DNA of 56,999 nt, taken from positions 1-56,999 of the forward strand of contig NZ_JADYTX010000008.1 in the NCBI RefSeq assembly GCF_021531475.1. The letters run 5' to 3'. Position numbers and translations under genes: made by a program. The first letter of the stretch is position 1. Every line of letters starts with the position of its first letter. The notes under the pieces are model-generated. The model made no database searches and had not been told where the DNA came from. It was given only the letters and a program-made list of their open reading frames with translations. This DNA comes from Fusobacterium perfoetens. Lineage in GTDB: Bacteria > Fusobacteriota > Fusobacteriia > Fusobacteriales > Fusobacteriaceae. Shown here piece by piece: positions 33,269 through 43,460 of this stretch.

Positions 33269-34264
33269 ATGAGAGTAGCAATAGTAGGAGCAACAGGATT
33301 AGTAGGAAGTACATTTTTAAAAGTTTTAGAAGAAAGAGATTTAGGAATAACTGAGTTATACCTTTTTGCATCAGCTAGAAGTGCTGGTAAAAAAATAAAT
33401 TTTAGAGGAAATGAATATACAGTAGAAGAATTAACTGAAACAAGTTTTGATAGAGGAATAGATGTAGCATTATTCTCAGCAGGTGGAGATATAAGTAAAA
33501 AATTTGCACCAATTGCAGCATCAAAAGGGTGTCTAGTAGTAGATAACTCTTCAGCTTGGAGAATGGATCCAGAAGTTCCTTTAGTAGTTCCTGAAGTAAA
33601 TAAAGACGCAGCTTTTGGAAATCATGGAATAATAGCAAATCCAAACTGTTCAACAATTCAATGTATGGCACCACTTAAAGCGTTAGCTAATAAATATGGT
33701 TTAAGAAGAGTAATATATAATACTTATCAAGCTGTATCTGGTACAGGTCAAAAAGGTGTAGAGGATTTACAAAATGGTTTAAAAGGGTTAGAACCAAAAG
33801 TATATCCACATCAAATAGTAAACAACTGTTTACCACATATAGATTCTTTCTTAGATAATGGATATACAAAAGAAGAGATAAAAATGATAAACGAAACTAG
33901 AAAAATATTAGAATTACCAGAACTTCCAGTAACAGCTACTTGTGTAAGAGTACCAGTTATAAACTCTCACTCAGTATCAATTACAGCAGAACTTGCAAGT
34001 CCATTTGATATAGAAGATGTAAAAAAAGTTATTGGAGAATTTGAGGGAGTAGTTTTAGTAGATAATCCTAAAAATAATGAATATCCATTAGCAACAGATG
34101 CAACAGGACAAGATAAAGTATTTGTAGGAAGAATTAGAAGAGATTTTAGTACAGAAAATAGTGTAAACCTTTGGACAGTTGCTGATAATATAAGAAAGGG
34201 AGCAGCAACAAACGCAGTTCAAATAGCTGAACTTTTTAGAGATATAAAAAATAAATTGGCTTAA
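33269..34264 (+). CDS. asd: Aspartate-semialdehyde dehydrogenase
   Basis: This 331-residue NADPH enzyme reduces aspartyl phosphate to aspartate semialdehyde. The N-terminal GATGLVGSTF nucleotide motif, SAGGDISKKFAP, the catalytic Cys127 in NPNCSTIQ and the later RVPV.NSHS segment with the active-site His are all present. It follows lysC by 19 bases with a GGAGAGG site. Length is normal for the Gram-positive-type enzyme. Confidence 0.96.
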   Translation: MRVAIVGATGLVGSTFLKVLEERDLGITELYLFASARSAGKKINFRGNEYTVEELTETSFDRGIDVALFSAGGDISKKFAPIAASKGCLVVDNSSAWRMDPEVPLVVPEVNKDAAFGNHGIIANPNCSTIQCMAPLKALANKYGLRRVIYNTYQAVSGTGQKGVEDLQNGLKGLEPKVYPHQIVNNCLPHIDSFLDNGYTKEEIKMINETRKILELPELPVTATCVRVPVINSHSVSITAELASPFDIEDVKKVIGEFEGVVLVDNPKNNEYPLATDATGQDKVFVGRIRRDFSTENSVNLWTVADNIRKGAATNAVQIAELFRDIKNKLA

Positions 34265-34273
34265 GGAGGAAAT

Positions 34274-35161
34274 ATGTCAATATTTGTTGGTTCAGGAGTA
34301 GCTCTTGTAACTCCTTTTGATAAAAGTGGAAATGTAGATTATGAAAAATTAGGTGAACTTTTAGAGTTTCATGTAGAAAATAAAACAGATGCAATCGTTA
34401 TAGTTGGTACAACTGGTGAAGCATCTACAATGACTGAATCTGAAAAATTATCTGTTATAAAATATACAGTTGAGAAAATAGATAAAAGGATACCAGTTAT
34501 TGCAGGAACAGGTTCTAATTGTACAGCAGGAGCTTTAGATTTTAGTAAAAAAGTAGAAAAACTAGGAGTTGACGGATTTTTAGTAGTAACTCCATATTAT
34601 AATAAAGGAAATGAAAGAGGAATCTATGAACATTATAAAATGATAGCTGAAAATGTAAATCTTCCAATTATTTTATACAATGTTCCCGGAAGAACAGGAG
34701 TAAATCTTTCAGTGTCACTTGTAAAAAAATTAGCACAACTTAAAAATGTAGTGGCTATAAAAGAGGCAAGTGGAAATATCTCTTATGCAGCAGAGATAGC
34801 TAGACTTGTGCCAGAACTTGATATATATTCTGGAAATGATGATATGACAGTGCCAATTTTATCCCTTGGTGGAAAAGGTGTAATATCTGTATCAGCAAAT
34901 ATTATCCCAGAAGTTATTCATAATATGGTAATGGCTTTCTTAAATGATAATCCAAAAGAAGCTTGTAGATTACAACTTGGATATAATGAACTTTCTAACG
35001 GAATGTTTATAGAAACAAATCCAGTACCAGTAAAAGAAGCTATGAACTATCTTGGATATGAAGTTGGAGGTTGCAGATTACCATTAGGAGAGATGTATGA
35101 GGAAAATATTTCAAAATTACACTCAATTATTGATAGACATGAGGTAAAAAGATGGAAATAA
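34274..35161 (+). CDS. dapA: 4-Hydroxy-tetrahydrodipicolinate synthase
   Basis: DapA (295 residues) condenses pyruvate with aspartate semialdehyde. The Schiff-base Lys163 lies in VAIKEASGN, Tyr135 in YNVPGRTGV, and the GTTGEASTMT segment binds substrate. The TIM-barrel length is standard. It has a perfect AGGAGG and its end overlaps the dapB start by ten bases. Confidence 0.97.
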   Translation: MSIFVGSGVALVTPFDKSGNVDYEKLGELLEFHVENKTDAIVIVGTTGEASTMTESEKLSVIKYTVEKIDKRIPVIAGTGSNCTAGALDFSKKVEKLGVDGFLVVTPYYNKGNERGIYEHYKMIAENVNLPIILYNVPGRTGVNLSVSLVKKLAQLKNVVAIKEASGNISYAAEIARLVPELDIYSGNDDMTVPILSLGGKGVISVSANIIPEVIHNMVMAFLNDNPKEACRLQLGYNELSNGMFIETNPVPVKEAMNYLGYEVGGCRLPLGEMYEENISKLHSIIDRHEVKRWK

Positions 35162-35856
35162 TTATACATGGAACAGGAGCTATGGGAAATGTTGTAAAAA
35201 ATCTAGCTTCTGAAGATGAAAATTTAAAAGTAACAGGATTTGCTGATGAATTAACTAATGAAACTGGAGATGTGATAATAGATTTTTCACATTTTTCAAG
35301 GTTAGATACATTACTTGATTATGCAAATTCAAAAAAAATACCATTAGTTATAGCAACTACTGGATATTCAGATAAGATTTATGATAAAATAGTAAAGGTT
35401 TCAAAAAATATTCCAATACTTCTATCATCTAATATGTCTTTAGGTGTAAATCTTATGCAAGATATCTTAGAAAAAATAGTTCCTATTCTTTATGGAAATT
35501 ATGATATAGAACTTATAGAAAAACATCATAATAAAAAAGTTGATTCTCCGAGCGGAACAGCAAAAACTATCTTAGATGTAATCGAAAAAGGTTGCGATGA
35601 AAAAATGGAAAGAGTTTATGGTAGAGAGGGAATCAAGAAAAGAGAGAAAAATGAAATAGGAGTTCATGTTGTTAGAGGTGGAACAATAGTTGGAGAACAT
35701 TCTGTAATGTTCTGTGGAAATGATGAAATTATAGAGATAAAACATACAGCTCTTTCTAAAAAAATATTTGGAATGGGAGCTTTGCAAGCTGGAAAATTTT
35801 TAGCAAAACAAAAGCCAGGACTTTACGGAATGAAAGATATATTTAATAATTTATAG
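35152..35856 (+). CDS. dapB: 4-Hydroxy-tetrahydrodipicolinate reductase
   Basis: DapB (234 residues) reduces the DapA product to tetrahydrodipicolinate using NAD(P)H. The Rossmann start is [11 protein letters not shown] and the catalytic signature [15 protein letters not shown] is intact (about 122-136). At 234 residues it is shorter than the roughly 270-residue E. coli type, a compact form also seen in other anaerobes. ATG 35152 lies within the dapA end, preceded by GAGG. Confidence 0.95.
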
Positions 35857-35866
35857 TGGAGGAAAA

Positions 35867-36571
35867 ATGAACGGAGTAAATACAGCAGAAGAGATAATAG
35901 CTTTTATAAAAAATTCTACAAAAAAAACACCAGTGAAAGCATATATAAATGGAGTTTTAAATAATTTAGAAACTAGTGCAAAAGTTTTTAAAGGAGATGG
36001 TTCATATATAATCATTGGTGAATCAACAGAAATAGAAAAAATATTAGAAAATAATAAAGAAACTATAACAGATGTTTATTTAGAAAATGATAGAAGAAAT
36101 TCTGGTGTACCTATGCTAGATATAAGAAATATCAATGCTAGAATAGAACCAGGAGCAATCATAAGAGATAAAGTAACTATTGGAGATAATGCTGTTATAA
36201 TGATGGGAGCTGTAATAAATATAGGTTCAGTTATTGGGGACGGAACTATGATAGATATGGGAGCAGTTCTTGGAGGAAGAGCAACAGTTGGTAAAAATTG
36301 TCACATTGGAGCAGGAGCAGTTTTAGCAGGTGTTGTAGAGCCACCTTCAGCAACTCCAGTTATAGTAGAAGATGGAGTTTTAATAGGAGCTAATGCTGTT
36401 GTTATCGAAGGAGTAAGAATCGGTAAAGGAGCAGTAGTTGGAGCAGGAGCAGTAGTTACTCAAGATGTTCCAGCAGGAGCGGTTGTAACAGGAAATCCTG
36501 CAAAAATAATAAAAATGGTAGATGAAAAAACTTTAGGTAAGACACAGCTGGTGGACGACTTAAGGAAATAG
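35867..36571 (+). CDS. dapH: Tetrahydrodipicolinate N-acetyltransferase
   Basis: This 234-residue enzyme is of the left-handed beta-helix family. It acetylates tetrahydrodipicolinate and so commits the operon to the acetylase variant of the DAP pathway. Hexapeptide repeats run from about residue 90 to 215. The segment [22 protein letters not shown] closely resembles Bacillus DapH (YkuQ) and its length is also the same. A succinyltransferase (DapD) is less likely because the N-terminal region is DapH type. It starts ten bases after dapB with GGAGGA. Confidence 0.92.
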
Positions 36572-37812: not shown

Positions 37813-39462
37813 TTATTTTAGGTATTCTTTTTCTAAAATAAATTCATTATTTTTTCTTGAAATTATAATTTTGTAAGTTTTATCTAAAGTATATGGAAAA
37901 TCCTCTCTATAATGAGCTCCACGGCTTTCCTCTCTTGTCAACATACTTTTTATAAGCATTTTACTTAATTGAAGCCTTAAATATGTTTCTATGGAATTAG
38001 AATCTAAATTTTCTTTTATATTATATTGATTTCTTAAAAGTTCAATTGATTTTAATCCATCTTCAAGAGAAGTTTTAGTTCTTTTTATACCAGCACATTT
38101 TGTTGTTATAGATTTTAAATTTTCTAAAACTTTAGAAGTTGAAAGTTTATTAACTTTATCATTTAAAGAAATTTCTTCTAGCCAACTGTTAAACTTTTCT
38201 TCAAAATCTTCTTTTGAATAAATTTTATTTTTATAATTTTCTAGATAAATATTTGCATCATCAACAGCTCTTTTTCCAAAAACTAAAGCTCCACCAACAG
38301 AGTTTCCTCCAAGTCTATTTGCCCCCTCAATAGCTGAAGAAAGTTCTCCTATAGCATATAATCCATCAACATCAGTTTTTCCATTTTCATTGACTTTTAT
38401 ACCACCATTACAGCTATGAGCAAAAGGAGAAATAACAACTTCATCACGACACATATCTATTCCCATTGTATTTTTTAACCAATCAAGATAAACTCTATAA
38501 AATTCCCCCTCATCTTTATATAAATCTTCAGAATATTTTAAAATCACTCCTTGATTTTTTTCATCATCGAACTCAACCATTTTTAAATCAATAAGATGAC
38601 TTTTAAAATCAAAACTGAAAGGAGCATAACCACTTCTCTCTATCCAAAGATCTTTATATTCTGGTGAGTTCACTCCGTCTAAAATAAGTTTTTTATCAAG
38701 AGAATACATACCTAAGCAATATTTTGCTGTATGTTCTCCAAATAGAGTATTATATTTAGGTTTTAAAAATGCTGGGATAAATTGGATAAACTCCATATTT
38801 TGAGCTTTTGCACCAGCATCTAATGCCACTATATGTCCAGTTCCAGTTATCTCTTCAGGATATAATTTATGTTTAAAATTCCCTGCCACTCCACCAGTTG
38901 CCATTATAACAACTGGTGAATTTATAGCAAAGAACTTTTTATCTTTTTGGAAGACAGCTCCCATAATTTTATCATTATCTTTTAAAATTTTTAAGATAGA
39001 TGAATCTTCAATAATCTCTAAATTTTCTAATTTTCCAAATATTTCTTTTGCCTTTTGACGAGCTTTATCCCAATCTTTTATAAGATAGATATTTCTTGGA
39101 TATTTAGCAAAACAAGCTGGTCTTTTATCATTTCTTAACCAAGGTTCAAAACCGATTTCTTCAAGAGAAGAGATTGAATCACAAATATCTTCAATATATG
39201 TGTTTATCATATGAGGATTTTCCATTTTATTTCCAATTTTTGAAATATCTTCATAAAATAATTCTTTGTCTTTTTCTCCGTCTGTTCCTTGTATACCCAA
39301 AGTTCCTTTTAATGGAAAATAACTAGCTCCACCACAAAATTTACCATTTGTAACAAGGCAAACTTTTTTTCCTTTAGAGATAGCTTTTTTTGTTGCAACG
39401 AGACCTCCAATACCAGTTCCCACTACTAAAATATCGCAGTTTAAAACAAAATCTAAATTCAT
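37813..39462 (-). CDS. FAD-dependent oxidoreductase of the fumarate reductase/aspartate oxidase superfamily, altered active site
   Basis: This 549-residue flavoprotein has an N-terminal FAD motif (VVGTGIGGLVATKKA), a second FAD segment EGANRLGGNSVGGALVFG and an ESRGAHYREDFP tail, the fold of SdhA/FrdA/NadB. The two dicarboxylate-binding histidines of SdhA are absent: QFHP is QFIP (Ile229) and VHGANR is IEGANR (Glu379). No covalent-FAD His is evident either. It therefore probably oxidises or reduces a different substrate. ATG 39462 is chosen because GGGAGG precedes it; an upstream TTG overlaps that site. It follows the ROK kinase by 26 bases and is probably cotranscribed with it. Confidence 0.8.
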   Translation of the reverse strand: MNLDFVLNCDILVVGTGIGGLVATKKAISKGKKVCLVTNGKFCGGASYFPLKGTLGIQGTDGEKDKELFYEDISKIGNKMENPHMINTYIEDICDSISSLEEIGFEPWLRNDKRPACFAKYPRNIYLIKDWDKARQKAKEIFGKLENLEIIEDSSILKILKDNDKIMGAVFQKDKKFFAINSPVVIMATGGVAGNFKHKLYPEEITGTGHIVALDAGAKAQNMEFIQFIPAFLKPKYNTLFGEHTAKYCLGMYSLDKKLILDGVNSPEYKDLWIERSGYAPFSFDFKSHLIDLKMVEFDDEKNQGVILKYSEDLYKDEGEFYRVYLDWLKNTMGIDMCRDEVVISPFAHSCNGGIKVNENGKTDVDGLYAIGELSSAIEGANRLGGNSVGGALVFGKRAVDDANIYLENYKNKIYSKEDFEEKFNSWLEEISLNDKVNKLSTSKVLENLKSITTKCAGIKRTKTSLEDGLKSIELLRNQYNIKENLDSNSIETYLRLQLSKMLIKSMLTREESRGAHYREDFPYTLDKTYKIIISRKNNEFILEKEYLK

Positions 39463-39488
39463 TTTTCCTCCCAAAACTATCTTAGATT

Positions 39489-40403
39489 TTAATTAAAATG
39501 TTTTATTTTTTTTAATAATAAATATTCAGCCCCAAGCATACCTGCATTATTTCCAAGTTCAGCAAATTTTATTTGAAGATTTTTCTTGTAATTTATTCCA
39601 ACTTTTGATTCAAAGCTTTCTTTTATCTTATCTAAAAGATAGTCACCTTGTTTTGTAACTCCTCCACCAATAACAACAAGAGGTGGATTGAAAATATATG
39701 TAATAGTGCTAAGTCCATCAGTGAAATAATCTACCCACTCTTTTATAATATTTACAAAAACTTCCTCTCCAGCTTTCTCTCTATCAAAAATTTCTTTTCC
39801 ATTAAGAGTTTCTCCAGTTCTTTCTTTTGCCATATTTACAAGAGCAGTAGCAGAGGCATATCTTTCATAACAACCTTTTTTACCACAAAGACATTCTTTA
39901 CCATTTTTTTCTATTTGTATATGTCCAAATTCTCCAGCTACACAAGTATCTCCTCTAAAGATATCTCCATTAAGGACGACTCCTCCACCAATACCAGTTC
40001 CTATAGTAACACAAACAAAATTATCTTGTCCTTTTCCAGCTCCTAGCCATTTTTCTCCAAGAGCAGCACAATTTACATCATTTTCTAAAACTGCAGGAAT
40101 ATTAAATTTATTTTCAAGTTTTTCTACAAGGTTTGTTCCTATCCAACCAGGAATTATTGGATTTCCTCCTATAACTTTACCAATACTTCCATCTATTTGA
40201 CCTGTACCAGAAACAGCAATTCCTAAAATTTCATTATCTTTAGAAAAATTATCTACAATGTTACATAATTTCTCAAATAAAATATCTATTCCTTTAGAAG
40301 CTTCTGTATCAACTTCTCCACTTTCAAGAATTTTTCCCTCTAAAGTTAGAAGCCCAAACTTAATCATTGTTCCACCAATATCAATTCCAACTACTTTTTT
40401 CAA
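39489..40403 (-). CDS. ROK-family sugar kinase
   Basis: This 304-residue ATP-dependent kinase phosphorylates a hexose or amino sugar. It opens VVGIDIGGTMIKFGLL (phosphate loop), has LENDVNCAALGE with the catalytic Asp, TIGTGIGGG, and the zinc signature GHIQ...CLCGKKGCYERYAS. The frame is open to 40451, but TTG 40403 follows AAGGAG and gives the normal ROK start. Glucokinase and N-acetylmannosamine kinase look alike here. The divergent symporter resembles sialic-acid carriers, which favours an amino sugar, yet no nanA or nanE is nearby. Confidence 0.85.
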   Translation of the reverse strand: MKKVVGIDIGGTMIKFGLLTLEGKILESGEVDTEASKGIDILFEKLCNIVDNFSKDNEILGIAVSGTGQIDGSIGKVIGGNPIIPGWIGTNLVEKLENKFNIPAVLENDVNCAALGEKWLGAGKGQDNFVCVTIGTGIGGGVVLNGDIFRGDTCVAGEFGHIQIEKNGKECLCGKKGCYERYASATALVNMAKERTGETLNGKEIFDREKAGEEVFVNIIKEWVDYFTDGLSTITYIFNPPLVVIGGGVTKQGDYLLDKIKESFESKVGINYKKNLQIKFAELGNNAGMLGAEYLLLKKIKHFN

Positions 40404-40456
40404 TTTATTCTCCTTTATAAAATTATAACTGTAATAAAAAATTATATGCAAAAAAT

Positions 40457-40470
40457 TGTTCTCGTGTACA
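40457..40470 (-). promoter_or_regulatory. Operator-like palindrome at the ROK kinase promoter
   Basis: TGTTCTCGTGTACA matches 12 of 14 positions of the perfect palindrome found at the symporter promoter. It lies immediately downstream of the minus-strand -10 box, the same relative position. The shared site suggests one repressor controls both transcripts. Confidence 0.6.
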
Positions 40471-40479
40471 TAAATAATA

Positions 40480-40506
40480 TAACTTTTTACATAATTTTGT
40501 CAATAC
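40480..40506 (-). promoter_or_regulatory. Promoter of the ROK kinase-flavoprotein operon
   Basis: On the minus strand a perfect TTGACA straddles 40501, with TATATT 16 bases or TATTAT 18 bases downstream. The transcript would begin close to the operator-like palindrome. Confidence 0.55.
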
Positions 40507-40716
40507 CTAAAATTTTTTTATAAAAAATAATCTTATGAAATCATATAAGTATAATTTAAATATATTATTATTGTATACAAAAAAAGCATAGATAAAAATA
40601 TTTTTTTAAAAAATTCCCAAATTTTTTATAGTGTTATGAACGCGTTATTATTAGGGATAGCAAGTATTTTTTAAACTGTTATTCCTAAAAAAGTACAAGT
40701 GTTTAGAAAAAAAATA
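40507..40716. other. AT-rich divergent intergenic region
   Basis: This is the middle of a 413-base gap between the kinase and symporter genes, with no coding frame. It holds two further palindromes, TTGTATACAA (40571-40580) and AACGCGTT (40639-40646), of unknown significance. Confidence 0.4.
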
Positions 40717-40745
40717 TTGACAAAATCTGAAAAATAAATTATGAT
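40717..40745 (+). promoter_or_regulatory. Promoter of the symporter gene
   Basis: A perfect TTGACA (40717-40722) and TATGAT (40740-40745) are 17 bases apart, followed at once by the operator palindrome. Confidence 0.7.
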
Positions 40746-40758
40746 ACAGAAAAAATAA

Positions 40759-40772
40759 TGTTCTCGAGAACA
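40759..40772 (+). promoter_or_regulatory. Perfect operator palindrome at the symporter promoter
   Basis: TGTTCTCGAGAACA is a perfect 14-base inverted repeat with a central CG, located about 14 bases after the -10 box, where a bound protein would block transcription. Central-CG palindromes are typical of LacI-type repressors, but no such regulator gene is in the window. Confidence 0.65.
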
Positions 40773-40816
40773 GAAAAACACAAAATATTTTTTAGATTTT
40801 TAGGAGGTTTAATTTA

Positions 40817-42352
40817 ATGAATTGGCATTGGGTCAACTGGGCTGTTATTGTACTTTATTTCTTTGGAATGTTTATGGTTGGAGTTTATTTCTCAAAAAGA
40901 ACTACTTCAACAGAAGATTATTTTAAAGCTGGTGGAAGAGTTCCATCTTGGGTAACAGCTTGTAGTATATATGCAACAGCACTTTCTTCAATTTCTTTTA
41001 TAGCTATACCAGCATCTGTATTTAGTAAAGGTTGGTTACTTGGAATGGCACCTTTAGGAATTATTCCTATCGTTTGGGTAGCTGCTGTTATATTTGTTCC
41101 TTTCTTCAGAAGAGTTAATGTAACTACTGCTTATGAGTATTTAGGAAAAAGATTTGATAACAAATTTAGATTAATAGGAAGTTTAGCATTTATTTTATTC
41201 CACGTTGTTAGAATGGCGATAGTATTATATCTTCCAACTCTTGCTTTACAACAAGCTTTACCATCACTTAATCCTGTTATCTTAACAGTTGGAGTAGCAG
41301 TATTCTGTGTTGCTTATACATCAATGGGTGGAATTGAAGCTGTTTTATGGTCTGACGCAATTCAAACTATAGTTTTATTATTTGGAGCTATGTTAATTAT
41401 AATAGTTGGATTTACTTCTGCACCAGAAGGAATTGGACAAGGATTCCAAGCTTTACATGATGGAGGATTAGTATTAAACTCTGACTTCTTATCACTTGAT
41501 TTTGCAAAAATCAGTTTATGGACAATGTTAATAGGAGGATTTGTAAACTCAATCTACTCTTATGTAGGAAGCCAAGATATCGTTCAAAGATACAATACAA
41601 CTAAAAATGAAACTGAAGCTAAGAAAAGTTTATTTATGAATATTCCACTATTATTAACAAGTATATTTATCTTTGTTGGAATGGGTTCAGCTCTATATAT
41701 TTTCTTCAAATATAATTCAAAATTACCTGAAGGAATCAACGGAAACGCAATATTACCATATTTCGTAATTAAATATATACCAACTGGGGTTTCTGGATTA
41801 GTTCTTGCTGCTATATTTGCTGCTGCACAATCAACAGTTTCTTCATCTTTAAACTCTGTATCAACTTGTATGACAGCAGACGTTTTAGAACATTTAAGAC
41901 CAGATATGACAGACGCTCAAAAATTAACTTTTGCTAAAGGTGTAAGCTGGGTAGTTGGAATCACAAGTACAATACTTGCAGTACATTTCTTATACGCAGG
42001 TCAGGGAGATATGTTCTTATACTTCCAAGCTATAACAGGACTTTTAGGAGGACCAATAGCAGGAGTATTCTTAGTAGGAATCTTCTTTGATAAAGTTAAT
42101 ACAAAAGCTGTTTGGGTTGGATTTATAGCATCTATATTAATCGCTCTTTATTTAACTAACCCAATGGGAATGGCCGCTGCAGTAATTCCTAATTATGTAA
42201 GACCTCAAGTATTTGAGTTTATGATATCTGTTTTAATAATCGGAGGAAGCGTAGTATTCTCTCTACTAGCATCTTTAGTAACTGGAAAAGAAGATCCAGC
42301 TAAAGTAAAAGGTCTAACTTACTCAACAGTAAAAGATATGGAAGCTAGATAA
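40817..42352 (+). CDS. Sodium:solute symporter (SSS family), sialic-acid-transporter-like
   Basis: This 511-residue inner-membrane carrier has about 13 hydrophobic helices. The opening VGVYFSKRTTSTEDYFKAGGRVPSW, then TALSSISFIAIP, YEYLGKRFD, GGIEAVLWSDAIQ, SQDIVQRY and FAAAQSTVSSSLNS, are SSS-family landmarks. They recall the Proteus SiaT sialic-acid symporter more than the glucose or proline branches. With the divergent ROK kinase it probably forms an uptake-and-phosphorylation pair for a sugar or amino sugar. The cargo is inferred only. Confidence 0.83.
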   Translation: MNWHWVNWAVIVLYFFGMFMVGVYFSKRTTSTEDYFKAGGRVPSWVTACSIYATALSSISFIAIPASVFSKGWLLGMAPLGIIPIVWVAAVIFVPFFRRVNVTTAYEYLGKRFDNKFRLIGSLAFILFHVVRMAIVLYLPTLALQQALPSLNPVILTVGVAVFCVAYTSMGGIEAVLWSDAIQTIVLLFGAMLIIIVGFTSAPEGIGQGFQALHDGGLVLNSDFLSLDFAKISLWTMLIGGFVNSIYSYVGSQDIVQRYNTTKNETEAKKSLFMNIPLLLTSIFIFVGMGSALYIFFKYNSKLPEGINGNAILPYFVIKYIPTGVSGLVLAAIFAAAQSTVSSSLNSVSTCMTADVLEHLRPDMTDAQKLTFAKGVSWVVGITSTILAVHFLYAGQGDMFLYFQAITGLLGGPIAGVFLVGIFFDKVNTKAVWVGFIASILIALYLTNPMGMAAAVIPNYVRPQVFEFMISVLIIGGSVVFSLLASLVTGKEDPAKVKGLTYSTVKDMEAR

Positions 42353-42378
42353 TAAATATATTAACAACAGTTTTAGTA

Positions 42379-42420
42379 AAATGTCGGAAGGATTTAATTC
42401 TTTTCGGCATTTTTTATTTT
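42379..42420 (+). terminator. Terminator after the symporter
   Basis: AATGTCGGAAGGA pairs with TCTTTTCGGCATT (with G-T wobbles) and is followed by TTTTATTTT. Confidence 0.8.
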
Positions 42421-42494: not shown

Positions 42495-43460
42495 ATGAAA
42501 GAGATAAAAATAACTGATATAGAAGGAATAAAAATAGGAAATTCTGAAAATAAAATAACTGGGACAGGTTGTACTGTTATAATTTGTGAAAAAGGTGGAG
42601 TAGCTGGAGTAGATGTAAGAGGAGGAGGTCCAGCATCTCATGAGACAGAACTTTTAAATCCAATAAATACAGTTGATAGAGTTCATGGAATATGTTTATC
42701 TGGAGGAAGTGCTTTTGGGCTTGAAGCAACAGCTGGGGTAATGAAATATCTTGAAGAAAAAGAAATAGGATTTAAAGTAGGAGACATAACTGTACCAATA
42801 GTTTGTGGAGCATCACTTTTTGATTTAGCTGTGGGAGATTCAAAAATCCGTCCTGATAAAGAGATGGGATACTTGGCATCACAAAATAGTGAAAAAAATA
42901 TTGTATGTGAGGGAAATTTTGGAGCAGGAACAGGAGCATCTGTTGGAAAATACAGAGGAATGGAAAGAGCTATGAAATCAGGTTTGGGAACATATGCAGT
43001 CCAAGTTGGAGATTTAAAAGTTGGAGCAATAGTGGCTGTCAATGCTGTTGGAGATGTAATAGATATAGAAAATAATAAACCTCTTGCAGGAATTTTAAAT
43101 GAGGAAAAAACTAAAATATTAAGTACAAGAGAGGAAATTTGGGAAGATTTTGAAAAAATTGGTGGAAAATTTACAGGAAATACAACAATAGCTTGCCTTG
43201 TAACAAATGGAAATTTTACAAAAGCTCAAGCTACTAAGATAGCAGGAATGACACATAATGGATTTGCAAGAGCAATATGTCCAGTTCATACATCTTTAGA
43301 TGGAGATACAATTTTTGTATTGGTAACAGGAGAAGTTGAAACTAATGTAGATACTGTTGGAACTTTAGGAGCCTATGTAATGGCAAAAGCTATCAATAGA
43401 GCAGTGAGAGAAACAGAGGGAGCTTATGGGCTTATTTCTTTAAAAGATTTAGAAAAATAA
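42495..43460 (+). CDS. P1-family (S58) aminopeptidase, DmpA-like
   Basis: This 321-residue N-terminal-nucleophile hydrolase resembles DmpA/BapA aminopeptidases. VDVRGGGPASHETELL, GGSAFGLEA and GAGTGASVGKY are family segments. Family members self-cleave before the nucleophile. Here the cleavage site is probably Asn-Thr in GNTTIACLVTN (about residue 235), giving a Thr nucleophile instead of the Ser of DmpA. The later THNGFARAICPVHTSLDGDT is also typical. It is monocistronic between two terminators. The natural substrate is unknown. Confidence 0.85.
   Translation: MKEIKITDIEGIKIGNSENKITGTGCTVIICEKGGVAGVDVRGGGPASHETELLNPINTVDRVHGICLSGGSAFGLEATAGVMKYLEEKEIGFKVGDITVPIVCGASLFDLAVGDSKIRPDKEMGYLASQNSEKNIVCEGNFGAGTGASVGKYRGMERAMKSGLGTYAVQVGDLKVGAIVAVNAVGDVIDIENNKPLAGILNEEKTKILSTREEIWEDFEKIGGKFTGNTTIACLVTNGNFTKAQATKIAGMTHNGFARAICPVHTSLDGDTIFVLVTGEVETNVDTVGTLGAYVMAKAINRAVRETEGAYGLISLKDLEK

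What the first reader, a model, noticed from the sequence alone, without database searches (positions are those of the whole stretch)
37813..42352. Candidate undescribed regulon: ROK kinase, divergent flavoprotein and SSS symporter under one operator
Two divergent transcripts, ROK kinase plus flavoprotein and an Na+:solute symporter, each have a TTGACA promoter. Each is followed at the same place by the same palindrome: perfect TGTTCTCGAGAACA at 40759-40772, and 12 of 14 positions at 40457-40470. A kinase and a symporter make a sugar uptake pair, but pairing them with an SdhA/NadB-fold oxidoreductase is not a standard sialic-acid or glucose locus: nanA, nanE and nagA are absent. The operator and layout are seen; the joint pathway is inferred.
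Basis: partly seen in the sequence, partly recalled or inferred. Interest (0 to 1): 0.62.

Follow-up and report, generated by a model that had tools for sequence, protein, structure and literature searches.

The report
LacI-controlled sialic acid regulon with flavoenzyme
The three genes belong to a regulon with which fusobacteria scavenge sialic acid (a host-surface sugar), linked by one 14-base repressor site to transporter, kinase, epimerase and lyase genes elsewhere in the genome; the odd member is an uncharacterised flavin enzyme that also sits in sialic-acid operons of unrelated Bacillaceae, where its job is still unknown.

Summary
The layout is real and the palindrome is a genuine, conserved operator. 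The pathway is not undescribed: it is sialic-acid (nan) catabolism, split over contigs. In the window's own genome the same box lies before nanM–lacI–siaPQM–nanK–nanE on contig C25. In relatives the box also precedes nanM, the lyase, YhcH/nanE and a sialidase, and a LacI-family gene lies beside it. The symporter is SiaT-like (Arg135 kept); the kinase is closest to FnNanK. Two parts look new: a LacI-type regulon for sialic acid (no description found in papers searched), and the flavoprotein. It has the FrdA/NadB fold but lacks the catalytic Arg loop. It occurs in 13 of 98 phylum genomes, always with the SSS symporter (0 of 82 genomes without it), and inside nan operons of four Bacillaceae. NanOx is absent from all 13. 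Unproven leading guess: it prepares a non-standard sialic acid imported by the symporter, as NanOx does with NAD.

The parts
37813..39462 (-). Flavoprotein of FrdA/SdhA/NadB fold without the catalytic Arg loop; second gene of the ROK transcript (ATG 39462 behind GGGAGG; the ORF listing gives TTG 39474)
39489..40403 (-). ROK kinase, best matched by F. nucleatum N-acetylmannosamine kinase 5NCK (start TTG 40403; the ORF listing gives 40451)
40457..40470 (.). Operator 2, TGTTCTCGTGTACA, 5 bases after the -10 of the ROK promoter
40476..40503 (-). Promoter of ROK-flavoprotein transcript, TTGACA-16-TATATT
40717..40745 (+). Promoter of the symporter gene, TTGACA-17-TATGAT
40759..40772 (.). Operator 1, perfect palindrome TGTTCTCGAGAACA, 13 bases after the -10 of the symporter promoter
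40817..42352 (+). SSS-family Na+:solute symporter, closest solved relative SiaT of P. mirabilis (5NV9)
42378..42413 (+). Terminator-like hairpin that closes the symporter transcript
   Evidence: one found, 1.5 expected in shuffles, so weak by itself

Best explanation
The locus is the symporter arm of a LacI-repressed sialic-acid (nan) regulon. SHOWN by sequence: a conserved 14-base box TGWWCNCGNGWWCA sits just after the -10 of both promoters; the same box precedes a nanM-lacI-siaPQM-nanK-nanE operon on another contig of the same genome; in relatives it precedes symporter, kinase-YhcH-nanE, lyase, nanM and sialidase genes and lies beside the lacI gene. INFERRED: the LacI-family protein (C25) binds the box and blocks transcription until a sialic-acid metabolite is present; the symporter imports a sialic acid; the lyase cuts it to pyruvate and ManNAc, the ROK kinase makes ManNAc-6-P, NanE makes GlcNAc-6-P. 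INFERRED and weaker: the flavoprotein, which follows the symporter rather than the lyase, converts a sialic acid variant brought in by that symporter, or a product of it, into a form the pathway can use. Its substrate is not fumarate, succinate or aspartate by the usual mechanism.
For: Motif: 4 sites v 0 control in own genome, 46 v 4 in 15 genomes. Own C25 operon and its operator after TTGACA; DctP best hit is F. nucleatum SiaP 4MMP/4MNP, 456 bits; start of nanE at contig end; lyase fragment at start of C13, 87% identical to an L040 protein whose best PDB hit is 6RAB, R. gnavus NanA. Box in front of lyase (L059, L061), YhcH/nanE, lacI, nanM, sialidase in relatives; exact TTGACA 28-47 bases upstream at 27 of 42 listed sites. 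ROK: 364 bits to FnNanK v 191 to a glucokinase. Symporter: SiaT 328 bits, next 174; Arg135 and Ser60 kept. True nanA (over cut-off) beside the same trio in L025, L029, L031. The F. nucleatum operon of the same order, with an unnamed regulator FN1471, is induced by Neu5Ac (PMC4045943). Flavoprotein: nested in SSS presence; in nanE-nanA-SSS-flavo-nanK-rpiR operons of four Bacillaceae.
Against: No binding or expression data for this organism. The lacI gene is unlinked here, and C25/C13/C55 are only contigs, so operon continuity across the gaps is inferred. In nine or so relatives the flavoprotein gene is not next to nan genes and has no box, once next to a MurNAc operon. The ROK protein stays below NCBIfam NanK cut-offs. 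Symporter residues for the anomeric OH and glycerol tail are replaced (T58A, Q82P), so Neu5Ac itself may not be the substrate.
Confidence: 0.86

Rival explanations
1. The flavoprotein is a flavin counterpart of NanOx/NanY: the symporter imports 2,7-anhydro-Neu5Ac or 2-deoxy-2,3-dehydro-Neu5Ac and the FAD enzyme turns it into Neu5Ac by an internal redox cycle.
For: E. coli pairs a second transporter NanX with NanY in the same way (PMC7535918). NanOx is absent from all 13 flavoprotein genomes (found in 2 of 98). The symporter lost the residues that hold the anomeric OH (Thr58) and glycerol tail (Gln82) and kept those for the carboxylate. Genomes hold SiaPQM for ordinary Neu5Ac as well.
Against: Absence of NanOx is the rule in this phylum, so it says little. 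Thr58Ala doubles Neu5Ac uptake in SiaT. Bacillaceae symporters keep Gln82. No sequence or fold link to NanOx (Gfo/Idh). Reaction is my inference.
Confidence: 0.2
2. The flavoprotein is a redox sink for the pathway's three-carbon product or for NADH (an anaerobic reductase or dehydrogenase), not a sialic-acid enzyme.
For: FrdA/NadB fold. It sits next to murQ-murP-mupG-rpiR in L024/L032, whose pathway also yields a three-carbon acid (lactate), as lyase yields pyruvate.
Against: The catalytic Arg and the His of QxHPT in NadB are replaced in all clade members. No partner FrdB or haem protein beside it. It tracks the symporter, not lyase-positive genomes in general.
Confidence: 0.25
3. The flavoprotein is a passenger: ROK and symporter landed beside an unrelated gene in this lineage.
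For: In the same genus the flavoprotein lies alone at the same place, beside the dap operon (L023) or the P1-peptidase/MatE block (L022, L030), so adjacency to ROK here is recent.
Against: Linkage to nan genes arose with different gene orders in L025, L029, L031 and Bacillaceae; 13/13 flavoprotein genomes hold the symporter (Fisher 1e-13, not corrected for phylogeny).
Confidence: 0.2
4. The box is a general catabolite (CcpA-type) site rather than a pathway operator.
For: LacI-family boxes share a central CG; the C25 regulator scores weakly with the CcpA model (43 bits, cut-off 442).
Against: Only 4 sites in a 2-Mb genome; the assignable ones are before nan genes; the lacI gene lies next to the box in relatives.
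Confidence: 0.04

Closest known systems
F. nucleatum nan operon FN1470-FN1476 (PMC4045943)
   Same: Order NanM - regulator - TRAP transporter - NanA/K/E matches contig C25; induced there by 20 uM to 2 mM Neu5Ac
   Different: Paper names no regulator family, no operator, no SSS symporter and no flavoprotein; it is one operon, here the regulon has several arms
SiaT sialic-acid symporter, P. mirabilis (5NV9)
   Same: SSS family, carboxylate-binding Ser60 and Arg135 kept, Thr63 replaced by Ser
   Different: Thr58 to Ala, Gln82 to Pro, Phe78 to Leu, Asn247 to Ser: anomeric-OH, glycerol-tail and N-acyl contacts changed
N-acetylmannosamine kinase FnNanK (5NCK)
   Same: Best solved relative by far (364 bits)
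   Different: Window kinase has the CxCGxxGC zinc motif that 5NCK lacks; two paralogs in this genome (72% identical)
L-aspartate oxidase NadB / fumarate reductase FrdA
   Same: Fold and FAD-binding parts, GANRLGGNS and His of HSxNGG motif; TM 0.7-0.8
   Different: No LRGEG arginine, no HPT, HGANR becomes EGANR; not the NadB of this genome, which lies next to nadA and nadC on C19
NanOx/NanY with NanX or SAT2 transporter
   Same: Redox enzyme coupled to a second sialic-acid transporter in nan loci
   Different: NanOx is an NAD-dependent Gfo/Idh-type enzyme; this is an FAD protein of another fold
NanR regulators (GntR type in E. coli, RpiR type in Clostridium, Vibrio, Streptococcus)
   Same: Repress or activate nan genes
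   Different: Regulator here is LacI family; Bacillaceae relatives of the locus use RpiR

Membership tests
Bacterial sialic-acid (nan) regulon | N-acetylneuraminate lyase in the same genome and regulon | tested here: met
   Fragment at start of C13; its full-length relative's best PDB hit is R. gnavus NanA; box before this lyase in L059 and L061. Box before the own-genome copy lies in the assembly gap, not seen
Bacterial sialic-acid (nan) regulon | NanE epimerase | tested here: met
   First 77 bases at end of C25 read MNRLEEVKGKLIVSCQALPDEPLHS, matching NanE starts of relatives; rest is in a gap, so the family search found none in G000
Bacterial sialic-acid (nan) regulon | Sialic-acid transporter | tested here: met
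   SiaP-type DctP with DctQM on C25 and SiaT-type SSS in window
Bacterial sialic-acid (nan) regulon | Expression induced by sialic acid | not testable with these tools
   Shown only for the F. nucleatum operon of the same order (PMC4045943)
SiaT-type SSS sialic-acid symporters | Arg135, Ser60, Thr63 that hold the carboxylate | tested here: met
   R, S and S (conservative) in all 18 relatives of this family but one T
SiaT-type SSS sialic-acid symporters | Thr58 and Gln82 that hold anomeric OH and glycerol tail | tested here: not met
   A and P in window protein; so works like SiaT on a carboxylated sugar, exact substrate open
ROK N-acetylmannosamine kinase | NCBIfam NanK cut-off (PRK05082 283 bits; NF047821 450 bits) | tested here: not met
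   141 and 127 bits; but best solved relative is FnNanK and operon mates in relatives are YhcH and NanE
Fumarate reductase / succinate dehydrogenase / L-aspartate oxidase | Catalytic Arg in the LRGEG loop | tested here: not met
   Replaced by A, L or F in GEHTxKY of the whole clade; present (VRGEG) in the genome's own NadB
Fumarate reductase / succinate dehydrogenase / L-aspartate oxidase | Curated NCBIfam score | tested here: not met
   Best TfrA 207.5 bits, cut-off 718; NadB 189, cut-off 453
NanOx / NanY | NAD-dependent Gfo/Idh/MocA-type fold | tested here: not met
   Pfam FAD_binding_2 and Succ_DH_flav_C only; fold FrdA
LacI-family repressor with pathway operator | LacI HTH plus sugar-binding domain, gene beside box | tested here: met
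   Relative in L035 and L025: PF00356 and PF13407; own copy on C25 is 56% identical with box 1.2 kb upstream before nanM; box directly before lacI in L166 and L167. DNA binding not tested

The most novel reading that the evidence does not exclude
A new enzyme class for sialic-acid scavenging: an FAD-dependent, FrdA-fold protein that converts a non-standard sialic acid (for example 2,7-anhydro-Neu5Ac or dehydro-Neu5Ac) imported by a dedicated SSS symporter, doing by flavin what NanOx does by NAD, in fusobacteria and Bacillaceae, in fusobacteria under a LacI-type sialic-acid repressor.
Probability: 0.2. Interest if true: 0.72.

Novelty: new variant of a known kind. Interest (0 to 1): 0.52.

Why it matters
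Sialic acid from mucus feeds many mucosal bacteria, and fusobacteria among them are tied to periodontal disease and colonisation of host tissue. The operator gives a simple sequence handle on which fusobacterial genes (two transporters, sialidase, mutarotase, lyase) answer to it, with a regulator family not reported for this sugar in the papers I searched. The flavoprotein marks an uncharacterised redox step that recurs in nan loci of at least two phyla and can be assayed directly.

Tried and rejected
Rejected: true aspartate oxidase or fumarate reductase (active-site loop and scores fail; the genome has a separate NadB next to nadA/nadC). Rejected: the nearby DapA (34274-35161) as the lyase; it scores as DapA (342 bits, cut-off 206) and only 167 as NanA. 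Rejected: glucose locus; kinase and symporter are both nearer to sialic-acid proteins. The C43 palindrome hit lies inside a coding gene and is taken as chance. First search for nanA with the TIGR00683 profile at 1e-80 found none in this genome and almost led to 'no lyase'; the divergent RgNanA-type lyase was found only with a relative's protein. Own-genome sialidase search found none, but the assembly has gaps. Paper searches for FAD oxidoreductase with nanA and operon found none, and those for LacI with fusobacterial sialic acid found nothing relevant.
Full report
Observation. The ROK gene most likely starts at TTG 40403 and the flavoprotein at ATG 39462, 26 bases after the ROK stop. The perfect box lies 13 bases after the symporter -10; the 12/14 box lies 5 bases after the ROK -10. 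In the window the two are the only matches with up to 2 mismatches (0.22 expected).

The box is an operator. In the own genome the symmetric motif TGWWCNCGNGWWCA occurs 4 times and its reversed control never; over 15 fusobacterial genomes 46 against 4. Orthologous symporter loci (83-90% identity; L033-L041) carry a box before the symporter and, in most, a second before the divergent ROK or lacI transcript, about 240-315 bases apart. At 27 of 42 listed sites an exact TTGACA starts 28-47 bases upstream of the box, so a bound protein would cover the start site: a repressor layout.

The regulon. On contig C25 of the own genome a box follows a TTGACA promoter and precedes nanM (kelch mutarotase), a LacI-family gene, a SiaP-type DctP, a fused DctQM, a second ROK kinase (72% identical to the window's) and the first bases of nanE, where the contig ends. 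Contig C13 begins inside a lyase whose relatives' best solved match is R. gnavus NanA 6RAB. YhcH lies elsewhere on C25 without a visible box. In relatives the box is found before the lyase (L059, L061), the ROK-YhcH-nanE part, nanM (L159, L161-L163, L165), lacI (L166, L167) and a BNR-repeat, autotransporter-type sialidase (L160, L170, L171). The C25 order is that of the F. nucleatum operon FN1470-FN1476, which answers to 20 uM Neu5Ac; its regulator FN1471 is not further described in that paper (PMC4045943). That FN1471 is the LacI ortholog is inferred from gene order only.

A second version of the system. In three genomes of other genera (L025, L029, L031) symporter (63-65% identical), ROK and flavoprotein lie with a nanA that passes the curated cut-off, and in two of them with a LacI gene (37% identical to C25's); boxes there read TGTTCGCGCGTTCA or TGTTCACGAGAACA.

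The flavoprotein. AlphaFold model pLDDT 90, pTM 0.92; nearest folds SdhA/FrdA and aspartate oxidase. In the alignment with the genome's own NadB, the NadB stretch QIHPT...SESVRGEG becomes QFIPAF...GEHTxKY in all clade members, so the catalytic Arg and a substrate-binding His are gone, while HSxNGG (His), EGANRLGGNS (Arg) and the C-terminal SRGAHYRED remain. It is found in 13 of 98 genomes of the phylum, all of which hold the symporter; 0 of 82 without symporter; among 51 lyase-positive genomes 13 of 16 with symporter and 0 of 35 without (Fisher 1.2e-9; not corrected for phylogeny, and dependent on the E-value limits used). Outside the phylum, homologs lie in Brachyspira (57%, short contig) and, at 35-38%, in Lentibacillus, Halobacillus, Bhargavaea and Bacillus aerolatus within nanE-nanA-SSS-flavoprotein-nanK-rpiR(-nagA) runs, and in Neobacillus between YhcH and a DHDPS-family gene. 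In Bhargavaea the nanE frame was not resolved by my ORF call. Within the window's genus the flavoprotein sits alone at the same chromosomal place in other species (L022, L023, L030), so ROK and symporter joined it, or left it, recently. Repeated linkage with different gene order speaks for a functional tie.

What it may do. The symporter keeps Ser60 and Arg135 of SiaT (carboxylate) and has Ser for Thr63, but Ala for Thr58 (anomeric OH), Pro for Gln82 (glycerol tail) (residue roles from PMC5931594). A sialic acid without a free anomeric OH, such as 2,7-anhydro-Neu5Ac, would fit, and NanX/NanY of E. coli is a precedent for a second transporter with its own redox enzyme (PMC7535918). NanOx is absent from all 13 genomes. 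This is inference: Thr58Ala in SiaT even raises Neu5Ac transport, and the Bacillaceae symporters keep Gln82. A redox-sink role is about as likely.

Verdict. The pathway is known (sialic-acid catabolism); the LacI-type operator and its regulon, and the symporter-linked flavoprotein, appear undescribed in the papers I could search, which leave out most subscription journals.

Noticed in passing
G000:C55:9664-9677 (L158:3165-3178): Fourth copy of the motif, TGAACACGAGTACA, 15 bases from a contig end; the gene it would serve is not in the assembly.
   Followed up: partly
L054:12953-13029 and L055:3-380: Contig breaks C25/end and C13/start both fall inside nan genes (nanE, lyase), so automatic annotation would call this genome negative for both.
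   Followed up: yes
L024:9036-15097, L032: Flavoprotein gene directly upstream of murQ, murP-type PTS, mupG and an rpiR gene (MurNAc use) in two related genomes.
   Followed up: no
L160:1434-3527, L170:1258-3363, L171:1-1280: BNR-repeat sialidase-like proteins, one with an autotransporter domain, preceded by the box; the F. nucleatum genome studied in PMC4045943 is reported to lack sialidase.
   Followed up: partly
L162:555-1421, L173:2202-3143 and similar: Outer-membrane-type proteins divergent from or next to boxed nanM genes; possible porin for sialic acid; no Pfam match for the one tested.
   Followed up: no
window 40457-40772; L034, L037-L041: The two boxes of the divergent promoters lie about 290-315 bases apart in most species, which would allow looping by a tetramer; not tested.
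   Followed up: no
window 33269-36571: Lysine pathway genes (dapA and neighbours) just beside the locus; dapA is DapA, not a lyase.
   Followed up: partly
window 42495-43460: Family S58 (DmpA-like) peptidase gene downstream of the symporter; has its own place in a conserved block with MatE and other transporters and is not part of the regulon.
   Followed up: partly
L031:14198-15142: Acetyl xylan esterase family gene directly after nanA and symporter; could be a sialate O-acetylesterase.
   Followed up: no
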